Below the pieces are notes generated by a model. That model worked only from the letters and a program-made list of their open reading frames with translations, had not been told where the DNA came from and made no database searches. Both the position numbers and the translations under genes were made by a program. This document shows positions 12,258-20,007 of a DNA stretch of 64,000 nucleotides, one piece after another. Source of the stretch: Parapedobacter indicus (GTDB taxonomy: Bacteria > Bacteroidota > Bacteroidia > Sphingobacteriales > Sphingobacteriaceae); the NCBI RefSeq assembly GCF_900113765.1, contig NZ_FOQO01000001.1, forward strand, positions 124,001 through 188,000, read 5' to 3'. Numbering within the stretch: position 1 is the stretch's first letter; each line of letters begins with the position of its first letter.

Positions 12258-13049
12258 TTACAAGAAGCGTTTAAAATTTTCAGGCGTATCTCCCGTATAT
12301 TGCTTGAAGTCTTTAACGAAGTGTGCCTGATCGAAAAAGTTATGCTGATAGCATAGTTCGATGAGCGATTTTGTGTGATTCAAGTTGTCGAGTACTGCAT
12401 TGAAACGGATGATAGAGGCAAATTTTTTAGGCGTGGTTCCGACCATCTTTCTGAAACGCTTTTCGAGCGGGCTTTGACTGATACCCAGCTTTTCGTTTAA
12501 CTCCTTAATGCGGATGGCTCCTTTACTTTGGCGAATGAGCTTTACGGCTTCTGCTATAAGTTTATCCGTTTGTATATCTTTAAGTTGTGATGACAGAAAT
12601 TGTTCAACGATTTTTATCCGTTGATTGTCCGTGGCTGCACAGGTTAGTTTTTCTTCTACCTCGTTGATACTTCTTGCGTCGAAAACATCATTGAGTGGAA
12701 TGCTTAGATTAAATAATTCGTGGGAGGGGAGCATAGCAAAATTGGAAAATCCGGTTTCCGTAAAGTAAACCAAAATGGTTCCAATGTTTGCCGAACCCCT
12801 GAAAATTTTATAGCCGTCCGTAATCCCGGTTATGCCGGCAGAAGCAAGATGGTTTACCGCCCTGTCTTTTACTGTTGAAAGCTGACCGTTATATTGAAAT
12901 CCGACTACTAATCCCGATGAAGGAAAAACCTTGTATTCATTTTCGCATTCACTTTCCGACACCACGAAGTATTTGATGTAGGGCTTTAGTGCTTCTATCG
13001 GTATGTATTTGTCAAACCTCATTCGTTTTACGTTGGTTTTAACGGTCAT
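12258..13049 (-). CDS. AraC family transcriptional regulator
   Basis: The 263-aa product has an N-terminal ligand or dimerisation-type region that opens MRFDKYIPIEALKPYIKYF and runs to about residue 150. A C-terminal AraC double helix-turn-helix follows (about 170-260), with LNEKLGISQSPLEKRFRKM as the first HTH and CYQHNFFDQAHFVKDFKQY as the second, ending TPENFKRF. ATG 13049 and ATG 13022 are both possible; the conserved domain starts at the second. It should bind DNA directly; its effector and target are unknown. It lies between DUF1398 (downstream) and the cytochrome c gene (upstream), all on the minus strand. Confidence 0.88.
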   Translation of the reverse strand: MTVKTNVKRMRFDKYIPIEALKPYIKYFVVSESECENEYKVFPSSGLVVGFQYNGQLSTVKDRAVNHLASAGITGITDGYKIFRGSANIGTILVYFTETGFSNFAMLPSHELFNLSIPLNDVFDARSINEVEEKLTCAATDNQRIKIVEQFLSSQLKDIQTDKLIAEAVKLIRQSKGAIRIKELNEKLGISQSPLEKRFRKMVGTTPKKFASIIRFNAVLDNLNHTKSLIELCYQHNFFDQAHFVKDFKQYTGDTPENFKRFL

Positions 13050-13193: not shown

Positions 13194-14171
13194 TTACCTT
13201 TTTGCATAGCTTCTGACCAGAATAGGTACATTCTTCGGTTCCAGACTTTTTAAGTAGACGTAAATAGCTTCGAGATCTTGCTTGCTCATGCCGGCATACA
13301 TTGTCCACGGCATAGGCGAATTGAGCTCGTCCTTAGCCATTGGTTTGGGATGGTAACTGCTATCCGCATACGCCTTAAATTTATTTACAAAAAGCGCTTT
13401 CGTCCATGCTCCGATCCCAGTCTCCGGGTGCATGGTAATATTAGGAGCACGGATGACACCCGCAGGCTGACGAAATTCCATGCCGCCACCGAATTCACTA
13501 CCGGGCACTACCTGCCCTTTATCCTGTTTGCTATGACAGTCGACACAGCCTGCAACGTTAACCAAATACGCACCGTAGTTAGTCGTATCACTTGGCAATG
13601 GTTTCAATTGGTGGACCGCAGGCGACGGAGATAGCTTGTTCAGGAGATTGACCGGAAAATCCAATTCAGGTGCAGGAATATCATTCTTGACAGCCGGTAG
13701 TGTCCGTAAGTAGGCGATGATGCTGTACACATCTGCTTTGTCCATCTGCCCGAAACGGTGATAGCCCATGACTGGAAACAGGGCTCGACCGTCCTTGCCT
13801 ACCCCCGCGGTAACGGCACGGTAGATCTCACCGTCTGTCCAATCGGACAAGCCGTAGGGCGTCAGATTGGTGGAATAGATCGTGCCCGGAAATCCAGCTT
13901 CTTTTGCAAATAGCTCCCCACCGCTTCCTTCGGTTCCTTTTGTTATAGGGCCACTAAAGACGTGCCAGTTCCGTTGGCTGTGGCAGTCCATACATACCGC
14001 CACATGCATGGCTAAATATTCTCCTCTTTCTATGCTTGCACTATCGCTACTAACCTTAATATCCGGCGCATCGCCTACATTCGGCATCGCAAAATTTACA
14101 TACAAACCGGTGCCCAATGCCAGAAATATGACCACACCCATGACAATGCCGAAAACTTTTAAAAATTTCAT
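13194..14171 (-). CDS. Membrane-anchored diheme c-type cytochrome
   Basis: A 325-aa protein with one N-terminal membrane anchor (about residues 5-27) and two haem c sites, CMDCH at 60-64 and CVDCH at 209-213, each inside a cytochrome c fold of about 130 residues. Candidate distal Met ligands lie in MGYHRF (135-140) and in PMPWTMYAGM near residue 285. The arrangement resembles the cytochrome subunits of membrane dehydrogenases. No flavin or quinoprotein subunit lies beside it, so its electron donor is unknown. A candidate LytTR-type binding site lies at 14258-14286, 87-115 bp upstream of the start. Confidence 0.9.
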   Translation of the reverse strand: MKFLKVFGIVMGVVIFLALGTGLYVNFAMPNVGDAPDIKVSSDSASIERGEYLAMHVAVCMDCHSQRNWHVFSGPITKGTEGSGGELFAKEAGFPGTIYSTNLTPYGLSDWTDGEIYRAVTAGVGKDGRALFPVMGYHRFGQMDKADVYSIIAYLRTLPAVKNDIPAPELDFPVNLLNKLSPSPAVHQLKPLPSDTTNYGAYLVNVAGCVDCHSKQDKGQVVPGSEFGGGMEFRQPAGVIRAPNITMHPETGIGAWTKALFVNKFKAYADSSYHPKPMAKDELNSPMPWTMYAGMSKQDLEAIYVYLKSLEPKNVPILVRSYAKR

Positions 14172-14257
14172 GTTTTATTCGTTTATGTAAGTTGCATTCG
14201 AGAAAACAGATATTCATTTTTACAAATATCAACCGGTGTTAGTGGTTGTCCAATAAA

Positions 14258-14286
14258 GATCGACAGACAGCTTATTTATGACGACA
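14258..14286 (-). promoter_or_regulatory. Candidate LytTR-type site upstream of the cytochrome c gene
   Basis: Read on the minus strand, two half-sites TGTCGTC and TGTCGAT lie 21 bp apart, with a GC dinucleotide at spacer positions 9-10. The same half-site, the same 21-bp step and the same GC occur at 16224-16252 and 16323-16351. A two-turn spacing of direct repeats is the usual arrangement for LytTR regulators such as AgrA and ComE. This copy is less perfect than the others. Confidence 0.5.
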
Positions 14287-14309
14287 AACGGCAGAAATAT
14301 AGCGTAAAC

Positions 14310-15023
14310 TTATCTCAGCCGTTTACGGAGTTCATCTTTATAATTTCTGCCAATAGGTAGTTCCTTGCCTAAGATTTCAATAGCAAAGGAATGATAACTT
14401 TGGACTTTTTCAATAGAAACAATAAAGGAACGGTGTATCCGGACAAATTTTTCTTCGGGCAGTAGCTCCGCCAACACGCTGATTTTCTGCTTACTGATAT
14501 ACGTCTTGTCGGCTAGGACAACTTTAATATAGTCTTTTAGGCTTTCTACCCAATAAATATCGTCTACATTAAGCTTCACATTTTTGCGGTCGACACGGAG
14601 ATAAAGAAAACTTTCGTTCTTGACATTTGACGTTGAGCTGGATGCCCTAATGGGCAAGAAATCAGGTCGGTAACCATGGAATACCTTATCCATTGCCTTT
14701 AAAAAGCGATCGAAAGGAATGGGTTTGAGCAGGTAGTCCACGGCATTCAGGTCAAATCCTTCAAGGGCATAATCCTGATAAGCGGTAGTAAAGATAATCC
14801 GGGGTGGATTCTTTAGCGTTCTGACCAGGTCCGTACCGAGTAGTCCCGGCATCTTAATGTCGAGAAATAGCAGATCGATCTTGTTCTTCTGGAGAATCTG
14901 GAATGCCTGCACTGCATTGCTACATTTAGCCACCAGTTGCAAGTCCGGAAAGTTGGCTATATATTTTTCGATAATGTCGAGTGCATGAGGTTCGTCATCG
15001 ACAATGACTGTTTTTATTTCCAT
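14310..15023 (-). CDS. LytTR family response regulator
   Basis: The 237-aa product has a receiver domain at about 3-118, with acidic pocket D9/D10, phosphoacceptor D55 in LLFLDIKMPG, T79/T80 and K100 in DYLLKP. The LytTR DNA-binding domain spans about 137-235 (YLRVDRKNVKLNVDDIYWVE, then FVRIHRSFIVS and LPIGRNYKD). It overlaps the 3' end of the histidine kinase gene by 10 bp, so the two are translationally coupled and form one two-component system. Candidate targets are marked by the 21-bp-spaced GTCGAC sites in front of the kinase operon, the yceI gene and the cytochrome gene. Confidence 0.95.
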   Translation of the reverse strand: MEIKTVIVDDEPHALDIIEKYIANFPDLQLVAKCSNAVQAFQILQKNKIDLLFLDIKMPGLLGTDLVRTLKNPPRIIFTTAYQDYALEGFDLNAVDYLLKPIPFDRFLKAMDKVFHGYRPDFLPIRASSSTSNVKNESFLYLRVDRKNVKLNVDDIYWVESLKDYIKVVLADKTYISKQKISVLAELLPEEKFVRIHRSFIVSIEKVQSYHSFAIEILGKELPIGRNYKDELRKRLR

Positions 15024-16186
15024 GACCGACTGGTTTTGGTTTTCGAAAAAATAGTAGCCATATGACCTGAATCAAACGAAGCTTCTCTTTCCGTTGTTGT
15101 TGCCAAATAGGGGACTGTACCAAAGTTTATCTGTAGAATTGCCAGATACATATCTTCTTCATCATAGATGGTTAACCGATGGGTTTCAGGATACATCAAC
15201 TCGAGCCGCTTTTTTAAATTCTGAAGACCAATGTTGCCACAGGCCGCGTCCCGCTCGATCGGCTGACTCGGCTTGCTGTTAGATACTTTTAGTTTCAGCT
15301 GATAGGCATCCACATCGAGGTCTATATTAATCCAGGCCTCCTCGGTTATCTCGCTGGCTCCATGCTTAAAGGCATTTTCGATCAGCGGGATCATCAATAG
15401 GGGAGAGACGCGTTGATCCGCTATCGTTCCTTTTATACTGAAATTAAGATCTAAGCGGTCTCCATAGCGCAGTTGTTCCAACGTTAGGTAATTTTGTATA
15501 ATGACCACATCCCGCTTCAGCGATACGTAATCGGCATTGCACTCGTAAAGCATGTAACGCAGTATATCCGATAACCCCAATACCACCTCCGGTGATTTGG
15601 GCGATTGATTGAGCGTGAGCGCATATAGATTATTCAGGGTGTTAAAAAGGAAATGCGGATGGATCTGTGACTTCAAAAAATTGAGCTCGGCCTGTAACGC
15701 GACCTGCTTGCGCTCATACCACATGCGGAAAAACTTAATGACCAGCGCTATCCATACGACCGAATTGCTCTGCTCCAACCCATGAATCAGGTACTCCATG
15801 TTTGTAAGCTGCTCCAAAAAGGTACCCTTTATTTTCTGCCATTTCCAGTCAGGATTAAGTTTACGCATCTCCTTAAAAAAATAGGGATCCGCAAAAAGAA
15901 TCTCAATGATCCGGTACATCAGCACGCAACCGACAGCAAGGAGGACAAAGCACAGCGTCAACTGTAAAAATTTCCGGGTGTAGAGGTATTTGGGAATAAT
16001 TACATAGCTCAGGGTATAGAAATAGACAACATGTACGGGAAGCAACATCATGACGGTATTGAATGCTGCCTTAAATCCGGGCCCTTCCACCTCGAACAGC
16101 GTGGTTAGGAAGACGACAATACACAACCAAAAAGTCACGTGCATAAGCACACGACCGTTAGCCGTCCATCTGGTGTTCATTTCCAT
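15014..16186 (-). CDS. LytS/YehU-type sensor histidine kinase
   Basis: An integral-membrane kinase of 390 aa. Four hydrophobic helices occupy about residues 12-100, and a further hydrophobic segment lies near 140-152. A His_kinase domain follows, with the phosphoacceptor motif HPHFLFN (about residues 176-182) and NTLNNLYALTL after it, then a HATPase domain with PLIENAFKHG and GNIGLQNLKKRLELMYP. There is no large extracellular sensor domain. The frame extends upstream to a TTG at 16192, but ATG 16186 is a better start. It partners the overlapping LytTR regulator. A candidate binding site 39-66 bp before its start suggests autoregulation. Confidence 0.93.
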   Translation of the reverse strand: MEMNTRWTANGRVLMHVTFWLCIVVFLTTLFEVEGPGFKAAFNTVMMLLPVHVVYFYTLSYVIIPKYLYTRKFLQLTLCFVLLAVGCVLMYRIIEILFADPYFFKEMRKLNPDWKWQKIKGTFLEQLTNMEYLIHGLEQSNSVVWIALVIKFFRMWYERKQVALQAELNFLKSQIHPHFLFNTLNNLYALTLNQSPKSPEVVLGLSDILRYMLYECNADYVSLKRDVVIIQNYLTLEQLRYGDRLDLNFSIKGTIADQRVSPLLMIPLIENAFKHGASEITEEAWINIDLDVDAYQLKLKVSNSKPSQPIERDAACGNIGLQNLKKRLELMYPETHRLTIYDEEDMYLAILQINFGTVPYLATTTEREASFDSGHMATIFSKTKTSRSWK

Positions 16187-16223
16187 ATACAAAAGTATTT
16201 AATTTCCGAAGATTCCAAGCAAC

Positions 16224-16252
16224 GGTCGACAGTGTGCAATTATTTGTCGACC
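16224..16252 (-). promoter_or_regulatory. Candidate LytTR-type site facing the kinase operon
   Basis: Two GTCGAC cores at 16225 and 16246 are exactly 21 bp apart. With one more base on each side they form a perfect inverted repeat, GGTCGACA and TGTCGACC. On the minus strand the spacer carries GC at positions 9-10, as in the other two sites. It lies 39-66 bp before the kinase ATG. Confidence 0.62.
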
Positions 16253-16322
16253 AACGACATATCCTACGATTTACGACCTTTTCAATGGCAGGGTCGCATC
16301 GCGTAGTATATTTCCAGCTAAG

Positions 16323-16351
16323 TGTCGACGAAATCATGCATTCCGTCGACG
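16323..16351 (+). promoter_or_regulatory. Candidate LytTR-type site facing yceI
   Basis: GTCGAC cores at 16324 and 16345 are again 21 bp apart, with GC at spacer positions 9-10. The site lies 55-83 bp before the ATG of the YceI lipoprotein gene. It is 99 bp from the matching site that faces the kinase operon. Confidence 0.62.
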
Positions 16352-16405
16352 GCGTTATCAGTCAGCTATCAAAGTAAGGATACTTGCAGAAAAATTAATT
16401 GAAGC

Positions 16406-17029
16406 ATGAAAATGAAAAATGTAATGATTGCCATTTGCTTGTCTGTTGTATTTATGGCATGCAAAAAAGAAAATGGATCAGTAGCAGCGGGAGAAGAGGT
16501 ACTGGCTGTGGAAACAGGTTCCACTGCAGCTTGGAAGGGGTACCTTGAAACGGGCTATTTTAATTCGGGTACGATCGCACTGGAGGCGGAGGACTTCCTA
16601 TTAAAAGGCGAAGAGATCACGGGTGGGGAAATTAGTATTCCCATTTCTTCTATTGTCGTCACGAATGATCTGCCGGCGGATAAAAAGCTGGAACTGACAC
16701 ATCACCTGCAAAGCGCAGATTTTTTTAACCTGGCTCTTTATCCACAGGTGGTTTACACGGTACGTTCGGCGCAGAAAACCGCTGCAGTTGATCCCAAAGG
16801 CAATAATTATTTGATCAAAGGGGATTTCAAGCTGTTGGGTAAATCACTTCCGTTGGATATTCCTGCCAAGATTGCGATTTCTGCTACGGATGTGGAGATC
16901 GTTTCCAATTTCACGTTTGATCGTACCAAATGGGGGATGACCTATGCTTCTGACGTCAATCTACCGGCAGCGGACAAGATCAAGAATGAAATCGAAGTAG
17001 ATATAGACCTGAAAGCAATCCGATTTTAG
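16406..17029 (+). CDS. YceI family lipoprotein
   Basis: The 207-aa product has a short lipoprotein signal ending in FMAC, with the acylated Cys at residue 19, then a YceI lipocalin-like beta-barrel domain (about 35-205). Visible YceI features are ISIPISSIVV, LTHHLQSADFF, YLIKGDFKLLGKS and FDRTKWGM. YceI proteins bind polyisoprenoid-type lipids, including quinone precursors, in the envelope; the ligand here is unknown. The gene is transcribed divergently from the LytTR kinase operon and has its own copy of the candidate binding site, so it is probably a target of that system (inference). Confidence 0.9.
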   Translation: MKMKNVMIAICLSVVFMACKKENGSVAAGEEVLAVETGSTAAWKGYLETGYFNSGTIALEAEDFLLKGEEITGGEISIPISSIVVTNDLPADKKLELTHHLQSADFFNLALYPQVVYTVRSAQKTAAVDPKGNNYLIKGDFKLLGKSLPLDIPAKIAISATDVEIVSNFTFDRTKWGMTYASDVNLPAADKIKNEIEVDIDLKAIRF

Positions 17030-17124: not shown

Positions 17125-17276
17125 ATGAACAGCGAAAAGCAATTGATTTTGGACTTTATCAATACGGTCTGGAATAGACGGGAGACGGATTCTTTCAGGA
17201 TAAGAAGGAAAGCTTAATCCCCCTTGAAAACATTGAAGGTTTTAGGCTGTTAATCATAGAGAATCAAAGGTATTGA
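17125..17276 (+). pseudogene. Remnant of a SnoaL/NTF2-like gene with the middle deleted
   Basis: The frame from ATG 17125 begins MNSEKQLILDFINTVWNRRETDS, like the first helix of SnoaL-like polyketide-cyclase-fold proteins, and then runs to a stop at 17215-17217. From about 17193, in another frame, the sequence reads sensibly again as IPLENIEGFRLLIIENQRY and a stop at 17274-17276, like a protein C-terminus. The simplest reading is a gene of usual size (about 120-140 codons) whose central part was lost. The family assignment rests on short ends only. Confidence 0.45.
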
Positions 17277-17302
17277 AGCTTATTTTAACCAAAAACAGCA
17301 CC

Positions 17303-17638
17303 ATGAGTGAACACTATTATGATGAAAAGGATCTAGCAAAGTTCGGTAACATCGGCGAATTTCAAAAAGAGTTGGGAGATCGCTTTTTCGCTTACTATGG
17401 GGAGGTATTTAAGGACAGCGAATTATCAGCGCGGGAAAAATCGCTGATTGCCCTGGCAGTAGCACATGCCGTGCAATGCCCGTACTGTATCGATGCCTAT
17501 AGTACGGATGCCTATGAAAAAGGATGGAGCGAAGCGCAGATGATGGAAGCGGTTCATGTTGCGGCGGCCATACGGGGAGGAGCTTCCCTGGTGCACGGGG
17601 TGCAAATGATGAATAAGGTAAAGAAAATAGCCATGTAA
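17303..17638 (+). CDS. Arsenosugar biosynthesis-associated peroxidase-like (AhpD/CMD fold) protein
   Basis: The 111-aa product belongs to the carboxymuconolactone decarboxylase / AhpD fold. It has the redox pair C59-x-x-C62 in QCPYCIDAY, preceded by H55, and the closing helix with MMEAVHVAAAIRGG. Members of this exact type accompany arsS in arsenosugar clusters. I start it at ATG 17303; the frame extends to a TTG at 17273, which only adds residues unlike the family. It ends 2 bp before arsS, so coupling is likely. The precise reaction is not established. Confidence 0.88.
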   Translation: MSEHYYDEKDLAKFGNIGEFQKELGDRFFAYYGEVFKDSELSAREKSLIALAVAHAVQCPYCIDAYSTDAYEKGWSEAQMMEAVHVAAAIRGGASLVHGVQMMNKVKKIAM

Positions 17639-17640
17639 CG

Positions 17641-18690
17641 ATGAAATCATTAAAGGCACAACATCATTCCCTTGCCGATGCCCGCGCGCAGTTAGCCATC
17701 CTGGTATATGGGCAAGATGGCTCTACCATCCCTATTTCCTTCCGGGATAAATTGGCACAATCCCAGTCGTATCCCCTCAAGCCCGGGCAAATTGACACCT
17801 TGCAGATCAATATTGGTAAGATGTGCAATCAAACATGTAAGCATTGCCACGTGGATGCCGGGCCGGATCGGAAAGAGATCATGACTGCGGAGACCATGCA
17901 ACAATGCCTTGACGTACTTCGACAGCATGAGCAGCTCACCGTTGTAGACATTACCGGCGGAGCCCCCGAGATGAATCCCAACTTCCGCTGGTTTGTGGAA
18001 CAACTGACCCGATTGGATAAGCAGGTTATCGTACGATGTAATCTCACCATCATCGTGGCGAATAAAAAATATGCCGACCTGCCAGACTTCTATCGGAAAC
18101 ATCGTGTTGAAGTCGTTTCCTCTCTTCCCTTCTATGCCCAGGACAGGACCGACAGGCAACGGGGCGACGGTGTATTTGACGCCAGCATCCGCGCACTTCA
18201 GCTGCTCAACCGTATCGGCTATGGAAAAGAGGGATCCGGATTAAAACTCAACCTGGTTTACAATCCTTCAGGCGCTTTTTTGCCATCCGGCCAGACCGCT
18301 TTGGAAAAAACTTTTAGAGAGGTACTGAGGCAGCGGTTTTCCATTGAATTCAACGAGTTGTTTGTCATTACGAATATGCCCATCAGCCGTTTTCTTGATT
18401 ATTTACTGATGAGCGGAAATTACGAAAACTATATGGAAAAGCTTATCCATGCATATAATCCGGCAGCAGCGGCGAACGTAATGTGCCGCAACACTCTTTC
18501 CGTAGGATGGGACGGCTATCTGTACGATTGCGATTTTAATCAGATGTTGGAATTGAAAGTCAACTGTCTGAGTCAACACATCCGCGAATTCAATGATCAG
18601 ATGTTAAAGGAAAGAGAAATCGTTGTAGACAACCATTGCTATGGGTGCACAGCTGGATCGGGATCAAGCTGTGGAGGTACGATTGCTTAA
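17641..18690 (+). CDS. arsS: Arsenosugar biosynthesis radical SAM protein ArsS
   Basis: A 349-aa radical SAM enzyme. The [4Fe-4S]/SAM motif is C62-x3-C66-x2-C69 in MCNQTCKHCH, followed by DITGGAPEMNP. The C-terminal cluster region has MCRNTLSVGWDG, CDFNQ and the ending CYGCTAGSGSSCGG. Related ArsS enzymes attach the 5'-deoxyadenosyl group of SAM to dimethylarsinite, giving the precursor of arsenosugars. In some relatives a C-terminal Cys is selenocysteine; here all positions are Cys codons and the frame ends normally at TAA 18690. It sits in an operon with the peroxidase-like protein and two glycosyltransferases. No arsM methyltransferase or ArsR regulator is visible nearby. Confidence 0.92.
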   Translation: MKSLKAQHHSLADARAQLAILVYGQDGSTIPISFRDKLAQSQSYPLKPGQIDTLQINIGKMCNQTCKHCHVDAGPDRKEIMTAETMQQCLDVLRQHEQLTVVDITGGAPEMNPNFRWFVEQLTRLDKQVIVRCNLTIIVANKKYADLPDFYRKHRVEVVSSLPFYAQDRTDRQRGDGVFDASIRALQLLNRIGYGKEGSGLKLNLVYNPSGAFLPSGQTALEKTFREVLRQRFSIEFNELFVITNMPISRFLDYLLMSGNYENYMEKLIHAYNPAAAANVMCRNTLSVGWDGYLYDCDFNQMLELKVNCLSQHIREFNDQMLKEREIVVDNHCYGCTAGSGSSCGGTIA

Positions 18691-18704
18691 CTAACGCAGC
18701 ATGT

Positions 18705-19310
18705 ATGGCGCAAACGGATATCCTAATCATATTTGCCAAGAGGCCTGTTTATGGCAAGGTAAAGACCCGTCTTGCCGTTTCCATCGGCCCTGCCGCGGCT
18801 TTGGAAATTTATCGGCAACTGTTGAACCATACCTTGGATATAGCGACGAAAGTAGAAGTCGAAAAAATTATTTTTTATTCCGATGAGACGGCGCCTGATA
18901 ATAGAACTGTCTCTGGTTTTCGAAGCACCACGCAGCATGGCGTCGACTTAGGGGAGCGAATGAAAAATGCATTTGCGGATGTGTTCAGGCAGGGGTATGC
19001 CAAAGCAGTAATTGTTGGTGCGGACTGCCCAGCTATCGATGAAACGATTGTAGCAGCCGCTTTCGATACACTGGACAAACGGGATGTTGTCATTGGTCCC
19101 GCATATGACGGTGGTTACTATTTGTTGGGAATGAAGCGAGTGCACCCAATGCTGTTCGAAAATATTCCGTGGAGTACAGCAACCGTTTTTGAGAAGACCG
19201 TAGCGATTTGCAAAAACGACGAACTTAGTTATTCGCTTTTGCCGCCGTTGCCCGATGTGGATGAAGAAAAAGACCTGCCGCATCTGGCAAAAATGAACCA
19301 ACATGGATAA
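18705..19310 (+). CDS. TIGR04282-type glycosyltransferase (DUF2064)
   Basis: From ATG 18705 the product is 201 aa with a nucleotide-diphospho-sugar transferase fold. It opens with DILIIFAKRPVYGKVKTRLA and has HGVDLGERM, the metal-binding-type GADCP and GPAYDGGYYLLGM. The family is known as rSAM/selenodomain-associated transferase 1 because it travels with arsS-like genes. The frame is open back to 18636, inside arsS, but family members start at the point chosen. It is expected to help add the sugar moiety in arsenosugar synthesis (inference). It overlaps the next gene by 8 bp. Confidence 0.88.
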   Translation: MAQTDILIIFAKRPVYGKVKTRLAVSIGPAAALEIYRQLLNHTLDIATKVEVEKIIFYSDETAPDNRTVSGFRSTTQHGVDLGERMKNAFADVFRQGYAKAVIVGADCPAIDETIVAAAFDTLDKRDVVIGPAYDGGYYLLGMKRVHPMLFENIPWSTATVFEKTVAICKNDELSYSLLPPLPDVDEEKDLPHLAKMNQHG

Positions 19311-20007
19311 TCGGCAAACCTTCCTAAGTATCATCATCCCGACATACAATGAGGCTGGGCATATCGTGCGTACACTCAACAAAATACATGCGGCGAATGA
19401 GACGCATCATACAGAAATAATTGTCGTAGACGGTGGCAGTACCGATGATACGGTCGCTTTGGCTGCCGCTGCGCGGGCAATCGTTGTGCAAAGCGAACGG
19501 AAGGGTAGAGCGGCTCAGATGAACAAAGGGGGTGCCCGGGCAACCGGAGAAATGCTTTATTTTCTTCATGCAGATAGCACCCCACCTACTAACTTTATGC
19601 ATGACATTCACGCGGCCCATTCACAGGGGGTAAAAAGCGGATGCTTCCGGCTTGCCTTTGACTGTCACCATTGGTTTTTGAGGGCGAATGCCTGGTTTAC
19701 CCGGTTTGATCTTAATGCCTTCCGCTTTGGCGATCAAAGTCTATTCGTTACCAAAGCGGTATTTCAGAAGTCGGGTGGATTCAGGGAAGATTTGTACATC
19801 ATGGAAGACCAAGAGATCATACACCGCTTAAAGAAGCACGGAAAATTTGCCGTGCTCAACGACAACGTTGTCACTTCCGCCAGGAAATACCTGGAAAATG
19901 GCATATACCGGATGCAAGGCATTTTTTATGCCACGTGGATTTTATACTACCTCGGATATTCACAGGCCCGTTTGGTCAAGTTGCATCGGAGATTTGTGAG
20001 GAGATAA
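19303..20007 (+). CDS. TIGR04283-type family 2 glycosyltransferase
   Basis: The 234-aa GT-A enzyme has LSIIIPTYNEAGHI, VVDGGSTDDT, the acceptor-side RAAQMNKGG and the metal-binding FLHADS. MEDQEIIHRLKKHG lies near residue 170, and a membrane-associated C-terminal helix contains GIFYATWILYYLGY. This is rSAM/selenodomain-associated transferase 2, the usual partner of the preceding gene. The ATG overlaps the previous stop (ATGGATAA), which indicates translational coupling. It probably works at the cytoplasmic face of the inner membrane. Confidence 0.9.
   Translation: MDNRQTFLSIIIPTYNEAGHIVRTLNKIHAANETHHTEIIVVDGGSTDDTVALAAAARAIVVQSERKGRAAQMNKGGARATGEMLYFLHADSTPPTNFMHDIHAAHSQGVKSGCFRLAFDCHHWFLRANAWFTRFDLNAFRFGDQSLFVTKAVFQKSGGFREDLYIMEDQEIIHRLKKHGKFAVLNDNVVTSARKYLENGIYRMQGIFYATWILYYLGYSQARLVKLHRRFVRR

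What the first reader, a model, noticed from the sequence alone, without database searches (positions are those of the whole stretch)
14258..16351. Three matching 21-bp-spaced GTCGAC sites define a candidate LytTR regulon
Pairs of GTCGA(C)-type half-sites exactly 21 bp apart occur before the kinase operon (16225/16246), before yceI (16324/16345) and before the cytochrome c gene (14259/14280). Read toward each gene, all three align without gaps and also share GC at spacer positions 9-10 and C at position 14. Known LytTR regulators bind paired direct repeats about two helical turns apart, and the system's own LytTR regulator is encoded here. This predicts an envelope regulon of a YceI lipoprotein, a diheme cytochrome and the kinase-regulator pair. 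The cytochrome site is the weakest match.
Basis: partly seen in the sequence, partly recalled or inferred. Interest (0 to 1): 0.72.

Follow-up and report, generated by a model that had tools for sequence, protein, structure and literature searches.

The report
Shared binding sites of a LytTR regulator
Three short paired DNA repeats in front of a sensor-kinase operon, a YceI lipoprotein gene and a cytochrome gene are almost certainly the landing sites of the LytTR gene regulator encoded between them; the kind of site is known, but this regulatory circuit, kept across a bacterial family, appears undescribed.

Summary
All three paired sites are present at the stated coordinates. The GTCGAC pair is the core of a longer 21-bp direct repeat, roughly C-N-GTTT-GTC[G/T]AC-N-AAA. 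It lies about 80 bp before the kinase gene in 62 of 69 examined loci, mostly Sphingobacteriaceae. A Bacteroidetes -7 box sits at one of two fixed distances downstream, one helical turn apart. The same genome carries a second copy of the system (LytTR 92% identical) with equivalent sites. Relatives have the motif before cytochrome genes and, less often, YceI genes. This matches the known LytTR operator architecture. A related LytTR paralogue uses a sister motif before small secreted proteins, so not every hit belongs to this regulator. Binding, sign of regulation and signal are untested. Verdict: a well-supported, probably undescribed LytTR regulon; a new member of a known kind.

The parts
14253..14291 (-). 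LytTR operator of the cytochrome gene (core 14259-14285): ccgtttGTCGTCataaataagctgtctGTCGATctttat
   Evidence: Best match in the window to the matrix from other genomes, 32.3 bits; profile R1 E=1.2e-5 in window, E=0.0012 genome-wide. Conserved in the C29 copy, 33.7 bits.
16219..16257 (-). LytTR operator of the kinase-LytTR operon (core 16225-16251): tcgttgGTCGACaaataattgcacactGTCGACcgttgc
   Evidence: 16.3 bits; conserved in the C29 copy, 20.0 bits; the same position before the kinase carries the motif in 62 of 69 loci.
16318..16356 (+). LytTR operator of yceI (core 16324-16350): ctaagtGTCGACgaaatcatgcattccGTCGACggcgtt
   Evidence: 18.6 bits, rank 2 in window; genome-wide E=0.035; conserved in the C29 copy, 17.4 bits.
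14310..15023 (-). LytTR response regulator (receiver + LytTR DNA-binding domain), the predicted binder
   Evidence: Pfam PF00072 E=1.4e-20 and PF04397 E=9.6e-19.
15014..16192 (-). Sensor kinase with PF06580 domain. The listed TTG start (16192-16190) lies inside the predicted -7 box, so the real start is more likely ATG at 16186 or 16180.
   Evidence: PF06580 E=3.1e-24; ORF; -7 box.
16190..16197 (-). Predicted -7 box TACTTTTG of the kinase promoter, 27 bp after the operator core
   Evidence: Exact TAnnTTTG at offset 27; same register in relatives.
14223..14230 (-). -7-like box GATATTTG of the cytochrome promoter, 28 bp after the operator core (one mismatch to TAnnTTTG)
   Evidence: Read from sequence; the C29 copy has GATTTTTG at the same place.
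13194..14171 (-). c-type cytochrome with two CxxCH haem motifs, predicted target
   Evidence: PF00034 E=1e-8; translation shows CMDCH and CVDCH.
16406..17029 (+). YceI-family lipoprotein, predicted target
   Evidence: PF04264 E=1.1e-17; MACKK lipobox-like start.

Best explanation
The three sites are operators of the LytTR response regulator encoded at 14310-15023. Each operator is two direct ~10-bp half-sites (consensus GTTTGTC[G/T]AC) with an 11-bp spacer, a 21-bp period that puts both half-sites on one face of the helix. The membrane kinase (PF06580) phosphorylates the regulator. Two LytTR domains then bind side by side just upstream of the sigma-ABfr promoter, at a fixed helical phase to the -7 box, and recruit polymerase. 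This switches on the kinase-regulator operon itself (positive feedback), the YceI lipoprotein and the diheme cytochrome c. Shown here: the motif, its conservation, its direct-repeat form, its promoter geometry, its presence at all three genes and in a second copy of the system. Inferred: binding by this particular protein, phosphorylation dependence, activation rather than repression, and the signal.
For: The matrix from 60 sites (43 clusters) in other genomes places the three sites at ranks 1-3 of the window in the expected orientation. Leave-genus-out test: 64 of 69 kinase promoters p<0.05, 58 at the floor of 1/201. Spacing N15 is singled out. Direct-repeat similarity of the two halves 0.93 against 0.81 for the best inverted register; the nearly invariant T, T, C of half one recur at +21 in half two. 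The site start is a median 79 bp before the kinase start. A -7 box TAnnTT[T/A]G lies 27-29 or 38-40 bp downstream in 52 of 62 promoters (shuffles mean 0.64, max 5); with strict TAnnTTTG, 24 of 26 boxes fall there. The paralogous C29 copy keeps all three sites. Cytochrome promoters in G293, G314, G306, G097, G132, G140 and G192 and YceI promoters in G026 and G192 carry it. Literature: LytTR sites are two repeats of 9-11 nt separated by 11-13 nt (PMC4847170); Bacteroides LytTR-type operons have direct repeats 11 bp apart upstream of a TATCTTTG box (PMC6193735).
Against: No binding or expression data. The genome has many LytTR-like regulators (39 matches to the regulator, some only in the receiver part), and one paralogue (contig C16, L007) has a related motif at its own kinase (19.0 bits), so cross-binding is possible. 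Some genomes with a linked cytochrome lack a clear cytochrome site (G009, G409, G066, G125), and most linked YceI genes in relatives lack one. The kinase and yceI sites of the window have weak GTTT flanks (16-19 bits). Sign of regulation is inferred from promoter position only.
Confidence: 0.87

Rival explanations
1. The sites are bound by the paralogous LytTR regulator (contig C16 type, or the C29 copy), or jointly by several LytTR regulators, rather than by the window's own regulator alone.
For: The C29 regulator is 92% identical with very few differences in the LytTR domain and its promoters carry the same sites, so cross-binding by C29 is expected. The C16 paralogue has a 21-bp-spaced site at its own kinase. 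In genus members lacking the window-type regulator, hits remain upstream of C16-type kinases and small secreted proteins.
Against: The C16-type sites mostly end in GTCTAA or GTCTAT in the second half, unlike the GTCGAC/GTCGAT of the window. In the sampled genomes from other genera that lack the window-type regulator, only 5 hits in 9 genomes, all with E>0.1, were found, against 50 hits in 16 genomes that have it.
Confidence: 0.25
2. The 21-bp-spaced repeats are sites of an AraC-family regulator, such as the AraC-type gene at 12258-13049; AraC half-sites are also direct repeats 21 bp apart (from general knowledge).
For: Spacing alone fits, and an AraC-family gene (PF12833) lies just downstream of the cytochrome gene.
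Against: The motif follows the kinase-LytTR operon across the family, whereas a relative of this AraC gene was found in only two of the other neighbourhoods, at 28-32% identity. The kinase promoter, not the AraC promoter, carries the site.
Confidence: 0.03
3. The regulator represses these promoters (negative autoregulation) instead of activating them.
For: No expression data exist; an upstream operator does not exclude repression.
Against: The operator ends 27-29 or 38-40 bp before the -7 box and so does not cover it, and it keeps helical phase with the promoter, which is activator geometry; characterised LytTR autoregulation with similar geometry is positive (PMC6193735).
Confidence: 0.12
4. 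Chance: GTCGAC pairs coincide by accident in three promoters.
For: The loose pattern with 3 mismatches is common in the window (34 matches against 23 expected).
Against: Cross-genome conservation, spacing specificity and the held-out ranking.
Confidence: 0.01

Closest known systems
LytS/LytTR two-component systems such as E. coli YpdA/YpdB and BtsS/BtsR
   Same: PF06580-type kinase with receiver-LytTR regulator; operator of two direct repeats of about 10 nt with an 11-nt spacer (YpdB: GGCATTTCAT twice, PMC4847170)
   Different: Half-site sequence GTTTGTC[G/T]AC; YceI, cytochrome and self as targets; sigma-ABfr promoter; the best NCBIfam match (BtsR) is far below its cut-off (130 against 246 bits)
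LytTR Regulatory Systems (LRS), incl. LRS-like operons of Bacteroides thetaiotaomicron and B. ovatus (PMC6193735)
   Same: Direct repeats about two helical turns apart immediately upstream of the operon's own promoter, interpreted there as positive autoregulation; Bacteroides examples use an 11-bp spacer and a TATCTTTG -7 box
   Different: Here the regulator is a receiver-LytTR protein with a histidine kinase, not a one-component regulator with an inhibitory membrane protein; repeat sequence differs
AgrA, ComE, AlgR, VirR operators (from general knowledge)
   Same: LytTR domain, paired repeats about 21 bp apart
   Different: Different phyla, sequences and targets

Membership tests
LytTR-family response regulator | Receiver domain plus LytTR DNA-binding domain | tested here: met
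   PF00072 and PF04397 well above cut-offs
LytTR-family response regulator | Operator of two repeats of 9-11 nt separated by 11-13 nt | tested here: met
   GTTTGTCGAC direct repeat, 21-bp period, 11-bp spacer; definition from PMC4847170
LytTR-family response regulator | Direct protein-DNA binding to that operator | not testable with these tools
   Needs footprint, EMSA or DAP-seq
LytS-type (PF06580) two-component system | Cognate PF06580 kinase in the same operon | tested here: met
   PF06580 E=3.1e-24, adjacent and overlapping gene; kinase next to the regulator in nearly all relatives
LRS (LytTR Regulatory System) | One-component LytTR regulator held off by a membrane inhibitor protein | tested here: not met
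   The regulator has a receiver domain and the partner is a histidine kinase
LRS (LytTR Regulatory System) | Direct repeats just upstream of its own promoter | tested here: met
   Operator followed by a -7 box at fixed distance
AraC-family regulon (rival) | AraC gene co-occurs with the sites | tested here: not met
   Only two distant AraC hits among the other neighbourhoods examined

The most novel reading that the evidence does not exclude
The sites define an undescribed envelope or redox response of Sphingobacteriaceae: a LytS/LytTR pair without an obvious extracytoplasmic sensor domain that co-controls a diheme cytochrome c and a YceI lipoprotein. A diverged sister regulator controls a family of small secreted helical proteins through tandem operators 41 bp apart, so that two duplicated LytTR circuits and their operators can be followed as they separate.
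Probability: 0.5. Interest if true: 0.55.

Novelty: new member of a known kind. Interest (0 to 1): 0.45.

Why it matters
LytTR/PF06580 pairs are abundant in Bacteroidetes (39 regulator-like matches in this genome alone, many of them only in the receiver part), but the literature searches run here found no experimentally defined operator or regulon for a kinase-linked LytTR regulator in this phylum. A concrete operator with promoter geometry makes targets predictable and testable, ties a YceI protein and a cytochrome to one signal, and gives a pair of recently duplicated systems plus a diverged paralogue for studying how regulators and their sites part ways.

Tried and rejected
my first degenerate genome pattern was out of register with the spacer, so its three hits mean nothing. 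Inverted-repeat reading: rejected (0.81 against 0.93), although the TTTGTCGACAAA core is itself nearly palindromic and partly explains the high inverted score. DNA looping between the kinase and yceI operators: not supported, since their distance is 99 bp in the window and 136 bp in the C29 copy, a difference that is not a whole number of turns. AraC rival: rejected on co-occurrence. Targets on C15 and C8 first looked like extra members of this regulon, but their GTCTAA/GTCTAT second half and the presence of the same arrangement in genomes lacking the window-type regulator point to the C16-type paralogue.

Full report
What was claimed and what is there. The window holds, on the minus strand, a c-type cytochrome with two CxxCH motifs (13194-14171), a LytTR response regulator (14310-15023) and a PF06580 sensor kinase (15014-16192), and divergently a YceI lipoprotein (16406-17029). 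The shared spacer letters (GC at 9-10, C at 14) are also correct.

Chance. The loose pattern is only mildly enriched in the window. The exact pattern, however, occurs at only four places in the 6.16-Mb genome: the two window sites and the two equivalent promoters of a second copy of the whole module on contig C29 (cytochrome 93%, LytTR 92%, kinase 89%, YceI 89% identical). In the alignment of the two kinase-yceI intergenic regions both operators and their surroundings are kept, while the DNA between them has diverged and differs by 37 bp in length. The cytochrome site of the C29 copy has changed letters (GTCGTT...GTCTAC) but still matches the family motif (see below).

Conservation in relatives. 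The regulator has close orthologues (E up to 1e-85) in 72 of 400 genomes of the family; named relatives include Pedobacter, Sphingobacterium and bacterium A37T11. Seventy-seven neighbourhoods were examined, including the window, the C29 copy and several more distant homologues. Scanning 93 upstream regions with GTCGAC-Nx-GTCGAC for x from 5 to 40, spacing 15 stands alone: 27 regions with 2 or fewer mismatches, against 0 to 9 at other spacings. Some regions are the two readings of one divergent intergenic region, so these counts are not fully independent.

The refined motif. Iterative matrix refinement on 69 kinase promoters gives a direct repeat, C-N-GTTT-GTC[G/T]AC-N-AAA, twice at a 21-bp period; the T, T and C that are nearly invariant in half one recur exactly 21 bp on. 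With matrices that exclude the genus under test, 64 of 69 kinase promoters contain a site at p<0.05 against mononucleotide shuffles. Site choice used all genera in the first round, so this is a strong but not perfectly blind test. The site start is a median 79 bp before the kinase start. The two halves resemble each other best as direct repeats (0.93; best inverted 0.81).

The held-out prediction. In the C29 copy the three equivalents score 33.7, 17.4 and 20.0. A profile (R1) built from the same kind of data gives the same top three in the window, and its best four hits in the whole genome are the two cytochrome and two yceI sites.

Promoter geometry. A Bacteroidetes -7 box follows the operator at 27-29 or 38-40 bp, one helical turn apart, in 52 of 62 promoters (shuffles mean 0.64, max 5). 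The TTAG variant was admitted after seeing the sequences; with strict TAnnTTTG, 24 of 26 boxes are in these registers. The consensus TTTG/TAnnTTTG is the published one for the phylum's primary sigma factor (PMC6847099). In the window the kinase promoter has TACTTTTG at 27 and the cytochrome promoter GATATTTG at 28 (one mismatch); the yceI promoter has only a poor match there. A site upstream of the core promoter at fixed helical phase is activator geometry.

Other targets and the sister regulator. Cytochrome promoters of seven relatives and YceI promoters of two carry sites; others do not, so the regulon varies. In the own genome two further promoters (C15, C8) match; they precede two related small secreted proteins, with two operators 41 bp apart. 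The same arrangement occurs in other members of the genus that lack the window-type regulator, together with sites at kinases of a paralogous LytTR system, whose copy in the own genome (contig C16) also has a 21-bp-spaced site at its kinase. Those sites mostly end in GTCTAA or GTCTAT. I assign them to the C16-type paralogue. In nine sampled genomes of other genera without the window-type regulator there were five hits, all with E>0.1, against 50 hits in 16 genomes that have it.

Comparison with what is known. LytTR regulators bind two repeats of 9-11 nt separated by 11-13 nt, without a shared consensus (PMC4847170). Predicted LytTR-type operons of Bacteroides have direct repeats with an 11-bp spacer just upstream of a TATCTTTG promoter (PMC6193735). 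The present sites have this architecture. The system is not an LRS, because it has a receiver domain and a kinase. No paper found in the searched library describes this regulon; the library is incomplete.

Mechanism. Most likely the kinase, which by its sequence has several membrane helices and no obvious extracytoplasmic domain (reading), phosphorylates the regulator; two regulator molecules bind the repeat and activate the promoter, with positive feedback on their own operon. The signal is unknown; the targets (a cytochrome c and a YceI protein, a family known from general knowledge to bind isoprenoids) suggest the redox or lipid-quinone state of the envelope, which is speculation.

Noticed in passing
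window 17273-20007 (+): Arsenosugar biosynthesis cluster directly downstream of yceI: peroxidase-like TIGR04169, radical SAM ArsS TIGR04167, glycosyltransferases TIGR04282 and TIGR04283, all above NCBIfam cut-offs. In the C29 copy none of the tested cluster proteins matched next to yceI.
   Followed up: partly
window 17125-17220 (+): Apparent remnant (MNSEKQLILDFINTVWN...) of a 143-aa gene that is intact in the C29 copy (L035:7185-7616), between yceI and the arsenosugar cluster; suggests a deletion or insertion scar.
   Followed up: no
L161:779-1366 (-) and L163:1629-2090 (+): Two related small secreted, probably helical proteins of unknown family (no Pfam hit above cut-off), each preceded by two LytTR-type operators 41 bp apart; widespread in the genus.
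   Followed up: partly
window 16180-16197 (-): The kinase promoter's -7 box TACTTTTG ends directly before the first ATG region, so the transcript is probably leaderless or nearly so; similar spacing in several relatives.
   Followed up: partly
G000 contig C29:11184-15054 (L035:3185-7055): Second, nearly complete copy of the cytochrome-LytTR-kinase/yceI module in the same genome, with 89-93% protein identity.
   Followed up: yes
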